54,729 nt of DNA. Source: Chloroflexota bacterium (lineage in GTDB: Bacteria > Chloroflexota > Ktedonobacteria > Ktedonobacterales > JACDGC01). Shown here in pieces: positions 833 to 47,378 of this stretch (the first letter of the stretch is position 1; every line of letters starts with the position of its first letter). The notes beneath the pieces were generated by a model. That model made no database searches and had not been told where the DNA came from. It worked only from the letters and a program-made list of their open reading frames with translations. The DNA is taken from NCBI GenBank assembly GCA_021778805.1, contig JAJYBV010000006.1, forward strand, positions 1 through 54,729. The letters run 5' to 3'. A program made the position numbers and the translations under genes.

Positions 833-914
833 AATGTATTTGGGAACACCCCAAACCCCGCGCATGGGGTATTTGTTCCTTGCGAATCCTTGGCATTACC
901 TCCTGAGTAGTTAT
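833..914 (+). mobile_element. Degenerate copy A of the 8-bp-TSD repeat family (right half)
   Basis: This stretch carries the GGGAACACCCCAAACCCCG module and ends with CCTCCTGAGTAGTTA, which matches the right terminus of the intact copies at 7478-7774 and 20069-20333. A left terminal repeat is not convincing; ATAACTCTTAG near 780 is a weak candidate. No matching target duplication is visible. I read it as an eroded or truncated copy lying directly downstream of the tetR-like gene. Confidence 0.55.
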
Positions 915-7469: not shown

Positions 7470-7782
7470 GATATTTAGTAACTACTCAGGAGGTAAAGCC
7501 AGGAATTGCTAATTCAACCACTGCACGGTACCCATGAGGCGATGCAATCCGGTAGGGGCGACCCTTGCGGTCGCCCTTGGCCCCGGCTACTATTGCTTTG
7601 GGAATAGTGTTTTAAATAATATTTATTGGGGCGTACCGTGCGGCGGTTGTATTAAAAAAAATGTCTTATGGGGACACCCCAAACCCCGCGCAAGGGGCTA
7701 TCGCCCCTTACGAATCCCCGGTGTGTACCGTGCGGTATCTTTGTGGTTCTTGGCCATATCCCCTGAGTAACTACGATATTTA
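7470..7782. mobile_element. MITE-like element B with 8-bp target duplication
   Basis: The element spans 7478-7774 (297 bp). Its left end GTAACTACTCAGG and right end CCTGAGTAACTAC form imperfect terminal inverted repeats that extend about 28 bp (AAGCCAGGAA against TTCTTGGCC). It is flanked on both sides by GATATTTA (7470-7477 and 7775-7782), a perfect 8-bp target duplication. Inside are hairpin modules: GGGCGACC/GGTCGCCC around CTTGC, ACCGTGCGGC, GGGGACACCCC and CCCCGCGCAAGGGG. It has no credible coding frame. This is the signature of a non-autonomous element moved by a transposase supplied elsewhere. It lies between the AT-rich ino1 upstream region and the gene at 7981. Confidence 0.85.
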
Positions 7783-20060: not shown

Positions 20061-20341
20061 AAAAATTCGTAACTACTCGGGGGGTTTTGACAAGGTCTCC
20101 TTAAAGCAAAAGATACCGCGCGGCATTGAAAGTCAGGCAGCAAAGGCGACCGCAAGGATCGCCCCTACCGGATTGCATGGCCCCATGTGTACCGTGCGGT
20201 GGTTATTATAAAAAATATTTTGGGGGCATCCCAATCCCCGTGCAAGGGGCTGCCGACCCTTACGAATCCCAGGCTGTTGCAGCTGCGCTGTCGTTAGAAA
20301 AGCCATTCCTGGCTTTACCTCCTGAGTAGTTACAAAAATTC
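20061..20341. mobile_element. MITE-like element C with 8-bp target duplication, inside the pilus operon
   Basis: The element spans 20069-20333 (265 bp). It begins GTAACTACTCGG and ends CCTGAGTAGTTAC; the outer 10 bp of the inverted repeats are perfect. Its flanks are AAAAATTC on both sides (20061-20068 and 20334-20341), a perfect 8-bp target duplication. Inside are GGCGACCGCAAGGATCGCC, ACCGTGCGGT and GGGGGCATCCC modules. The GGTAGGGGCG module is inverted relative to element B, so modules have been shuffled. It contains no gene. It sits between flp and cpaB, so the pilin transcript must pass through about 260 nt of hairpin-rich sequence to reach the assembly genes. Confidence 0.88.
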
Positions 20342-21536: not shown

Positions 21537-22075
21537 GTAAATACTCATGGGGTTATGAGAAAGTCTCCATAAAGCAAAAGCCAGCACAAGCGCCGCCCCA
21601 TATTGTTTGTTTAAGTATACGCTGCGCGGTCACATCTAAGGCAATGCAATCCGGTAGGGGCGACCCTTGCGGTCGCCCTTGCTTCCCGGCTACCAATATT
21701 ACTTAAGGAATTTAGGTTTAAAATAATAATTTTTTGGGGACACCCCAAACCCCGCGCAAGGGGCATCCGCCCCTTACGAATCCCCATGGGTACCGTGCGG
21801 TATTTTGTTTATAAAAAAGAGATTTTGGGGACACCCCAAACCCCGCGCAAGGGGCATCCGCCCCTTACGAATCCCCATGGGTACCGTGCGGTGGTTATTT
21901 ATAAAAGAGATTTTGGGGACACCCCAAACCCCGCACAAGGGGCATCCGCTTCTTACGAATCCCCATGGGTACCGTGCGGTATTTTGTTTATAAAAAAGAG
22001 ATTTTGGGGACACCCCAAACCCCGCGCAAAGGGCATCCGCCCCTTACGAATCCCAGGCTCTTGCAGCTGCGCTGT
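21537..22075. mobile_element. Composite, expanded repeat copy D (right end lost)
   Basis: The left end GTAAATACTC, with the following TGGGGTTATGAGAAAGTCTCC, matches the left part of element C. It is followed by the GGGGCGACC/GGTCGCCC hairpin, then almost four tandem copies of the GGGGACACCCC unit. The right side still matches element C as far as GGCTCTTGCAGCTGCGCTGTCGT, then diverges, so the right terminal repeat is missing. No target duplication can be found. At about 540 bp it is twice the size of B and C because of the internal amplification. Frames that cross it read only repeat sequence and are not taken as genes. Confidence 0.7.
21736..22059. repeat. Tandem array of a 88-91 bp hairpin unit
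   Basis: Units begin with GGGGACACCCC at 21736, 21827, 21915 and 22006 (periods 91, 88 and 91). Each holds CCCCGCGCAAGGGG, GGGGCATCCGCCCC and GGTACCGTGCGGT, then an A/T-rich spacer (TTTATAAAAAAGA type). Units 1-3 are complete and the fourth is cut at GAATCCCAGG. Near-identity suggests recent amplification. Confidence 0.85.
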
Positions 22076-22325
22076 CGTAAGATTCGCATCTTATTTAGAA
22101 TATGAATTTGCGATTGACGTTCAATCTTTCCAAAATTGGTGATCAGATTGGTGTATTATGAGGTACAATAATAGCTAGTGTTATATATATAGTCCTTCGT
22201 GGTACTGTGGAAAATACTGCGCTGTGCGGCAATAATCTCATTGCGAAGACTGTTCCAAACAGGTACCATTTTTAGAACAGCGCAGCAATAAAGCACAATT
22301 TTTTTGCGCAGCAAGGTGCAGTAAT

Positions 22326-45631: not shown

Positions 45632-47252
45632 ATCATTTTTGATACAGCAATATCGCAGAACGCCGGCAGAAGTTTGGCTTGCTATTGGCCTTGCGCTTGT
45701 CGGCGTTTTTTTGCGTCTGAAAGTTATACCCTTTGTTACAAATAATTATGATGAAGGGGTATATACTGCTGCATTGCGATCGTTTACCGCGGGCAATGCT
45801 TTATATCGGCAGGTATACATGGCTCAGCCGCCTTATTTTATCCTACTGCTTGCGCCTTGGTTTATATTGGGCGGCAAAACAATTGTTGCGGCGCGCTATG
45901 GTGTGCTGTTTTATTCGCTTTTTGGCGTTATTGGGGTGTGGGCGCTGGCGCGTTCTTTATCCGGTCCGCTAGCAGGATTGCTGGCCGTTGCCGCATTAAC
46001 GTTTGATCCGCTCTATTTCACGCAATCGGTTTCGGCGCAGGCTGAAGCGCCGGCAGTGGCAATGATGATTGTTGCGGTAGCGTTTGCAGCATCGGCAAAG
46101 AATAAGCCGGATATGCGCAAGACTTTTTTTGCGGGATTTTTCTTTACTGTCGGTATTTTGATTAAATTATTTATTGTACCGGCGATTATTCCAATCTTAT
46201 ATTTTTTACTTTTTCCCTATGGTTTACCGCGTGCGCCGAAATCTTGGAGCGCCATGTGGATTATCTTTCAAGAACGCCGCCGGCTTTTCGCATTTTTGGG
46301 GTTGGGTATTTGGGTAGCGGCTTTGCCGGCTATGGTACTGTTTTTGCAAGATCCATCGGCCATGTGGAATCAGGTAATCGGTTTGCATGTAGCGGCAACA
46401 GGCGCATATGCCCAAAATCGGTTGAATAATATATCGCTGTTTTTTTCAATTTGGTGGGAAGCGCCGCTGGTTGTTGGGGCAACAGCCATATCCATATGGC
46501 TGTACAAAAAGCAGCAGTGTGCTGATGGGCTGATATTGCTGCTGTGGGGATATAGTTCGATAGTTGTGCTTCTCATTCAAACGCCACTGTTTGATCATCA
46601 TTTAGTGTTGATTGTGCCGGGATTTATTGCCTCATTATCTTTGATTGCCCAAGATACCTTGCTGGCGTCTGTGCGGTTTCAGATACGCGGCGCGGCGCAA
46701 ACAGCAATAGCAGGCTTTCTTGTCGTGGTGTTTCTCAGCGCCGGCGCAGTAACGCTGCATCGGGTATCATCTGATGCGCAGACAACCGCGAGTGATCTTT
46801 CTATTACTGCGGTGGCGTTTGAGCTGGATGCGTTAACTTCTCCGCAAGAATATGTAGTGACCGATGATCAGGTGATTGCCGATCTGGCAAACCGCAATAT
46901 TCCTCCTGAATTAGTAGATACCTCAAGTGTGCGCATTGCTTCCGGAAGCTTAACCTCGGCGGATGTAATACAGCAGCTGCAAAATCCGCAAGTCGTCGCT
47001 GTGTTGTGGTATTCCGGAAGATTTAATGCTCTGCCCGGATTGCTGGCGTATGTAAAAGCGCATTTTACCGCGGTTATTCATTATGGCGGCGGCCGTGTTT
47101 TATATATTCGCACACCTCCTGCGCTGCCCGTTGCTGCTGTGAAAAACAGTGGGTCAATGATATCCGGCTACAAATGCAGGGATTCACAAGGAGCGGCGCC
47201 TGCCCCTTGTGCGGGGATTGGGGTGTCCCCAAATACATTTTTATACAAATAA
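45600..47252 (+). CDS. Membrane glycosyltransferase, ArnT/PMT-like, with repeat-derived C terminus
   Basis: A 550-residue GT-C glycosyltransferase with about 11 TMs. The first luminal loop has NYDEGVYTAALRSFTAGNALYRQVYMAQPPYF, shown here in part by NNYDEGVYTAA and MAQPPYF; the Asp-Glu pair is the family's catalytic motif. Such enzymes transfer sugars from polyprenyl phosphates to proteins or lipids. After a soluble C-terminal domain (VVTDDQVIADLANR to GGGRVLYIRTP), the last 25 residues and the stop lie in a repeat element, so the original end has been replaced. An alternative start lies at 45546; 45600 fits the TM topology better. Confidence 0.87.
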   Translation: MAIKLKLDHARSFLIQQYRRTPAEVWLAIGLALVGVFLRLKVIPFVTNNYDEGVYTAALRSFTAGNALYRQVYMAQPPYFILLLAPWFILGGKTIVAARYGVLFYSLFGVIGVWALARSLSGPLAGLLAVAALTFDPLYFTQSVSAQAEAPAVAMMIVAVAFAASAKNKPDMRKTFFAGFFFTVGILIKLFIVPAIIPILYFLLFPYGLPRAPKSWSAMWIIFQERRRLFAFLGLGIWVAALPAMVLFLQDPSAMWNQVIGLHVAATGAYAQNRLNNISLFFSIWWEAPLVVGATAISIWLYKKQQCADGLILLLWGYSSIVVLLIQTPLFDHHLVLIVPGFIASLSLIAQDTLLASVRFQIRGAAQTAIAGFLVVVFLSAGAVTLHRVSSDAQTTASDLSITAVAFELDALTSPQEYVVTDDQVIADLANRNIPPELVDTSSVRIASGSLTSADVIQQLQNPQVVAVLWYSGRFNALPGLLAYVKAHFTAVIHYGGGRVLYIRTPPALPVAAVKNSGSMISGYKCRDSQGAAPAPCAGIGVSPNTFLYK

Positions 47253-47378
47253 AACACCGCACGGTACACATGAGGCCCTGCAATCCGGTAGGGGCGACCG
47301 CAAAGGTCGCCCTGGAATACGGTGTTGGTATATCTTGTCCCTCTTCTGCGGAGCTTTAGGCACCTCTTGAGCAGTTAC
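47179..47378 (-). mobile_element. Repeat copy E, truncated, in reverse orientation
   Basis: On the minus strand it reads like element C: GTAACTGCTC terminus (47378 inward), GGGCGACCTTTGCGGTCGCCCC, ACCGTGCGGT and GGGGACACCCCAATCCCCG. The other end stops at GGGATTCAC near 47179, inside the coding region of the upstream glycosyltransferase, with no terminal repeat. No 8-bp duplication can be matched, in keeping with deletion of one end. It supplies the last codons of the upstream gene. Confidence 0.7.

What the first reader, a model, noticed from the sequence alone, without database searches (positions are those of the whole stretch)
7470..7782. Non-autonomous element with terminal inverted repeats and an 8-bp target duplication
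GTAACTACTC-type termini face each other at 7478 and 7774 and are flanked by identical GATATTTA on both sides. A second copy at 20069-20333 is flanked by AAAAATTC on both sides. Two independent perfect 8-bp duplications show that these are transposed units and not just interspersed repeats. There is no transposase inside, so one acting in trans is implied. Families producing 8-bp duplications include IS1595, ISL3, IS256 and IS6, so the helper is probably one of these (inference).
Basis: partly seen in the sequence, partly recalled or inferred. Interest (0 to 1): 0.75.

Follow-up and report, generated by a model that had tools for sequence, protein, structure and literature searches.

The report
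IS66-type MITE with mosaic interior
The window holds short gene-less DNA units that were pasted around this bacterium's genome by a transposase of the IS66 family; only a broken relic of such a transposase was found in the assembly, and the units' interiors are mosaics of older repeat pieces.

Summary
Elements 7478-7774 (297 bp) and 20069-20333 (265 bp) have facing GTAACTACTC-type ends and perfect 8-bp duplications (GATATTTA, AAAAATTC). The genome has about 61 such ends (reversed-pattern control: 1). Of 29 units picked by their ends alone, 11 have a perfect 8-bp duplication and 7 more match at 7 of 8; mismatched flank pairs give 0 of 1,624 perfect. The length is exactly 8. So this is a real family of non-autonomous transposed units (a MITE). 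IS66 elements of the same order carry the same 12-13 bp ends and 8-bp duplications. The own assembly holds a relic (contig C113:480-1170): the MITE end, matching over about 38 bp, followed by a broken IS66 transposase without its catalytic half. No intact helper was found (assembly 93% complete). The interiors are not IS66 leftovers but mosaics of GC-rich palindromic cassettes, also found in a second, differently ended repeat class and partly in related species. The same-genus genome lacks both elements, though exact empty sites could not be read.

The parts
7470..7477 (.). 8-bp target duplication GATATTTA, left copy of element 1
   Evidence: identical to 7775-7782
7478..7774 (+). Element 1, IS66-type MITE, 297 bp; cassette order t2(+) A(+) B(+) then a t1-like right end
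   Evidence: ends GTAACTACTCAGG / GTAGTTACTCAGG
7775..7782 (.). 8-bp target duplication GATATTTA, right copy of element 1
7541..7575 (+). Cassette A (palindromic GGTAGGGGCGACCCTTGCGGTCGCC) inside element 1
   Evidence: a 24-nt core is also found in order relatives
7669..7718 (+). Cassette B (GGGGACACCCC..AAGGGGC..GCCCCTTACG) inside element 1
   Evidence: also in tandem arrays of this genome and in the same-genus genome
20061..20068 (.). 8-bp target duplication AAAAATTC, left copy of element 2
20069..20333 (+). Element 2, IS66-type MITE, 265 bp, canonical order t1(+) A(-) B(+) t2(-); 93% identical to a copy on contig C126
20334..20341 (.). 8-bp target duplication AAAAATTC, right copy of element 2
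21537..22087 (+). Third, degenerate copy: t1-like end GTAAATACTC, cassettes E, A, four tandem B, remnant of t2; right terminus lost
47179..47378 (-). Fourth, degenerate copy: t4 end GTAACTGCTC at 47369-47378, A, B; other terminus decayed, no duplication seen
839..914 (-). Fifth, truncated copy: cassette B and a t2 end (ATAACTACTC)

Best explanation
The two units are members of one MITE family mobilised in trans by an IS66-family transposase of the single-ORF ISBst12-like group. The transposase recognises the ~13-bp end GTAACTACTCAGG (with family-specific bases inside it) and inserts the unit into AT-rich, mostly intergenic DNA with an 8-bp staggered cut that becomes the duplication. Shown: the ends, the 8-bp duplications, the identity of the ends with those of intact IS66 elements in related genomes, and an IS66 relic carrying this family's own end in the same genome. 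Inferred: that this IS66 (or its intact ancestor) moved the MITEs, that it is now lost or decayed in this lineage, and that the interior arose when IS66 ends came to flank an older pool of palindromic intergenic cassettes that then reshuffled.
For: 11 perfect and 7 near-perfect 8-bp duplications among 29 units chosen without using flanks, 0 perfect of 1,624 in the control. IS66 (PF03050) loci in the order: facing ends GTAACTACTCAG / GTAACTATTCAG with perfect 8-bp duplications in 9 loci, elements ~1.5-1.7 kb with one ORF of ~490-520 aa; in one genome (G040) 32 of 34 ends form 16 pairs about 1,540 bp apart around PF03050 hits. Own genome: NF033517 (transpos_IS66) hit at C113:742-1170, E 5e-16, with two stops, 262 bp behind a GTAACTACTCAGG end at C113:480; its pieces match intact IS66 transposases of relatives at up to 45-55% identity and its first 38 bp match a MITE t1 end at 92%. 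Published: ISDge4, IS66 family ISBst12 group, ends GTGACTACTCAGCA / GTAACTGCTCAGCA and an 8-bp direct repeat at an observed new insertion (PMC12898284); IS66 insertions in Frankia with 8-bp repeats (PMC11946415).
Against: No intact IS66 transposase in the assembly: PF03050 found nothing; only the N-terminal relic exists, so present-day helping is not shown. The end shared with relatives' IS66 is short (12-13 bp); beyond it sequences differ. The interior shows no IS66 sequence, so the MITE is not a simple internal deletion. No exact empty site was recovered: the same-genus genome lacks the elements at both loci but has diverged and has other repeats there. 11 of 29 end-selected units have 6 or fewer matching bases; they may be decayed copies or chance pairings of ends.
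Confidence: 0.88

Rival explanations
1. The helper is IS1595, ISL3, IS256 or IS6, as the first reader inferred from the 8-bp duplication.
For: These families also make 8-bp (or about 8-bp) duplications (general knowledge); no intact IS66 in the assembly.
Against: The end GTAACTACTCAGG sits on IS66 elements in the order with 8-bp duplications and on an IS66 relic in the same genome. Those four families were not searched for one by one.
Confidence: 0.03
2. The units are simple internal-deletion derivatives of the resident IS66 element that later diverged.
For: A deletion derivative of IS66 with a perfect 8-bp duplication exists in a relative (G038, 626 bp). The MITE t1 end matches the relic's first ~38 bp.
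Against: The interior consists of cassettes A and B, which occur in non-IS66 arrays of this genome and in other species without these ends, and the relic's interior does not match any MITE interior beyond the first ~42 bp.
Confidence: 0.08
3. Intergenic repeats that spread by recombination or gene conversion, not transposition; the flanking 8-mers are AT-rich chance matches.
For: Flanks are AT-rich (82% AT in the perfect duplications); cassettes clearly reshuffle.
Against: 0 of 1,624 mismatched flank pairs reach 8/8 against 11 of 29; the length is exactly 8; one duplication is GC-rich (GCGCGGCT).
Confidence: 0.01

Closest known systems
IS66 family, ISBst12 group (for example ISDge4 of Deinococcus geothermalis; PMC12898284)
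   Same: Ends GTRACTRCTCAG, 8-bp direct repeat; single transposase ORF in the relatives' elements
   Different: The units here carry no transposase and an unrelated cassette interior
MITEs proposed to be mobilised in trans by a resident IS (for example RUP with IS630-Spn1, discussed in PMC3049150)
   Same: Short, non-coding, terminal inverted repeats, target duplication, strong predicted folding, mostly intergenic
   Different: Different helper family; the prokaryotic MITE review PMC10969869 does not mention IS66
Composite repeats: pneumococcal BOX (boxA-boxB(n)-boxC), Neisserial mosaic and Correia elements, P. gingivalis BrickBuilt (PMC3049150, PMC4596501)
   Same: Constant ends with variable, sometimes tandem internal modules
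   Different: No sequence relation was tested or claimed; here two end types (IS66 ends and TGAACTTT ends) share the same internal cassettes

Membership tests
MITE (non-autonomous transposed unit) | Terminal inverted repeats, short, no transposase gene | tested here: met
   131-599 bp units with facing ends; no ORF of 90 aa or more within 7478-7774 or 20069-20333
MITE (non-autonomous transposed unit) | Target-site duplication of fixed length at many copies | tested here: met
   11 perfect 8-mers and 7 near-perfect of 29; none longer; control 0 perfect of 1,624
MITE (non-autonomous transposed unit) | Empty site with one copy of the target | tested here: inconclusive
   same-genus genome lacks both elements, but flanks too diverged to read the junction
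IS66 family, ISBst12 group (as source of the ends) | Ends begin GTAA and match intact IS66 ends | tested here: met
   12-13 bp identical to IS66 elements in the order; PMC12898284 ends GTRACTRCTCAG
IS66 family, ISBst12 group (as source of the ends) | 8-bp target duplication | tested here: met
IS66 family, ISBst12 group (as source of the ends) | Intact IS66 transposase available in the same genome | tested here: not met
   none; only an N-terminal relic with stops (assembly 93% complete, 157 contigs)
IS66 family, ISBst12 group (as source of the ends) | Transposition of the unit by the transposase | not testable with these tools
   needs an in vivo assay
IS1595 / ISL3 / IS256 / IS6 derivative | Ends shared with an element of that family | not tested
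   these families were not searched individually; the same ends were found on IS66 instead
BOX-like composite repeat | Constant end modules with a variable number of internal modules | tested here: met
   B in 1-4 copies inside units with IS66 ends (L104, L004) and up to 6 in the other class; resemblance of architecture only, not homology

The most novel reading that the evidence does not exclude
One pool of palindromic intergenic cassettes is shared and reshuffled between two unrelated kinds of mobile ends in the same genome: IS66 ends (8-bp duplication) and TGAACTTT...AAAGTTCA ends whose copies show no direct duplication and instead tend to sit at the centre of palindromes. Cassette exchange at a common junction (ACCGCACGGTAC) would make this a naturally modular repeat system rather than two ordinary MITE families.
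Probability: 0.25. Interest if true: 0.6.

Novelty: new member of a known kind. Interest (0 to 1): 0.4.

Why it matters
It identifies the helper family of a MITE from sequence alone and shows a relic of that helper in the same genome, so the origin of a repeat family can be traced. IS66-type MITEs appear little described in the papers searched here. The shared cassettes give a tractable case of a MITE interior built from pre-existing repeats instead of from the parent transposon.

Tried and rejected
PF03050 in the own genome gave nothing, because the relic lacks the catalytic half; the longer model NF033517 found it. Exact right-end pattern in the GTDB contig collection: 0 hits (own-genome records may be left out there). 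The 19-nt end was absent from 60 relatives. Rfam found only two tRNAs in the window, so the units match no curated RNA family at its threshold. Short facing ends in relatives (86-174 bp; G036, G038, G044) were fetched as possible sister MITEs but have no 8-bp duplications and were not used. A fuzzy regular-expression scan timed out and was replaced by BLAST of cassette consensus sequences.

Full report
What is there. Element 1 runs 7478-7774 (297 bp) and is flanked by GATATTTA on both sides; element 2 runs 20069-20333 (265 bp) and is flanked by AAAAATTC on both sides. The outermost bases are GTAACTACTCAGG (element 2 left: GTAACTACTCGGG), and the right end of element 1 reads GTAGTTACTCAGG. The window also holds three decayed copies: 839-914, 21537-22087 and 47179-47378.

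More than chance. The own genome (3.25 Mb, 157 contigs, 93% complete) has 33 + 28 ends of the form GTARYTACTCNGG against 1 for the reversed pattern. I fetched loci around these ends and chose 29 units by their ends only. Eleven have identical 8-mers outside the ends and seven differ by one base; pairing left and right flanks of different units 1,624 times never gave 8/8 and gave 7/8 fourteen times. The match stops at exactly 8. The targets are 82% A+T, with one GC-rich exception. Twelve of 19 units with duplications interrupt no ORF of 100 aa or more; the other seven have an ORF across the rejoined flanks whose reality was not tested. The closest two copies are 93% identical and most best pairs are 79-90%, so there is no sign of very recent spread.

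Which transposase. IS66 transposases (PF03050) are common in the order to which the genome belongs but absent from the own genome by that model. Around IS66 genes of relatives I found facing ends GTAACTACTCAG or GTAACTATTCAG with perfect 8-bp duplications (L032, L033, L035, L036, L037, L042, L048, L059, L060; further cases). In G040, 32 of 34 ends form 16 pairs about 1,540 bp apart around PF03050 matches. With the longer model NF033517 the own genome gives one hit, C113:742-1170, E 5e-16, with a TAG and a TAA inside. It lies behind a GTAACTACTCAGG end at C113:480. Its two open pieces resemble the N-terminal part of relatives' IS66 transposases (up to 45-55% identity; piece 1 also matches Pfam DUF6444). 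The relic stops before the catalytic domain, which explains the PF03050 miss. Its first 38 bases match a MITE t1 end (L090) at 92%, and several others at 84-92% over similar lengths. So the MITE ends and an IS66 end are linked inside the same genome. Published work agrees: ISDge4, of the ISBst12 group of IS66, has ends GTGACTACTCAGCA and GTAACTGCTCAGCA and an 8-bp repeat at an observed insertion (PMC12898284); IS66 insertions in Frankia made 8-bp repeats (PMC11946415).

Interior. BLAST of cassette consensus sequences against the fetched loci shows recurring pieces: terminal t1 to t4, palindromic A and B, and C, D, E, F. The commonest unit is t1(+) A(-) B(+) t2(-), as in element 2. Element 1 is t2(+) A(+) B(+) with a t1-like right end, so orientation and order vary. 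B occurs in up to four tandem copies in units with IS66 ends (L104, L004). A and B also occur, with C-F, in a second class without IS66 ends. Cassette B occurs in the same-genus genome and a 24-nt core of A in several order relatives, none with this family's long ends. The interior is therefore probably older than the family and not IS66-derived. Single strands of the units fold better than shuffled sequence (z -3.9 as DNA for element 2, z -6.8 as RNA for element 1), as is usual for MITEs.

Absence in a relative. The same-genus genome G001 aligns on both sides of both elements and has no exact GTAACTAYTCAGG anywhere in its 79%-complete assembly. Between the aligned flanks it carries other sequence, including its own B-like repeat at element 2's locus, so a clean junction with one 8-mer could not be read. 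This fits insertion after the split, or loss in G001, without proving which.

Limits. The helper is not intact here and no movement has been observed. Cassette names and boundaries are mine, drawn from a handful of copies.

Noticed in passing
G000 loci L142 (293-1005), L095 (139-564), L138, L124, L184, L185, L191, L203: A second repeat class, about 97 D-type left ends in the genome, ends TG[AG][AT]CTTT...AAAG[TA][TC]CA, cassettes D-C-E-A-B(n)-F, no direct duplication. Flanks tend to be reverse complements of each other (10 of 20 at 8/10 or better against 6% in the control, some of the 10 being nested repeats), as if inserted at the centre of palindromes.
   Followed up: partly
window 21733-22054: Four tandem copies of cassette B (about 90-bp period) create an apparent ORF at 21786-22142 that is probably not a gene.
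   Followed up: partly
G001 loci L169 (about 2000-2100) and L178 (about 460-600): The same-genus genome has its own repeat (CTTTCGCTGCAGCATGGAACATCGGGGATGTAC...) in the same two intergenic regions, in opposite orientations; independent insertions in matching places, or a hot spot.
   Followed up: no
L223 (G038:C1:1296882-1297507): A 626-bp internally deleted IS66 with a perfect 8-bp duplication (ATTCTATG) in a relative: a deletion-type non-autonomous IS66.
   Followed up: partly
L024 915-1513: A 599-bp unit whose t3-E-A-B part is doubled (second copy of A inverted) inside one pair of ends with one duplication (GCGCGGCT).
   Followed up: no
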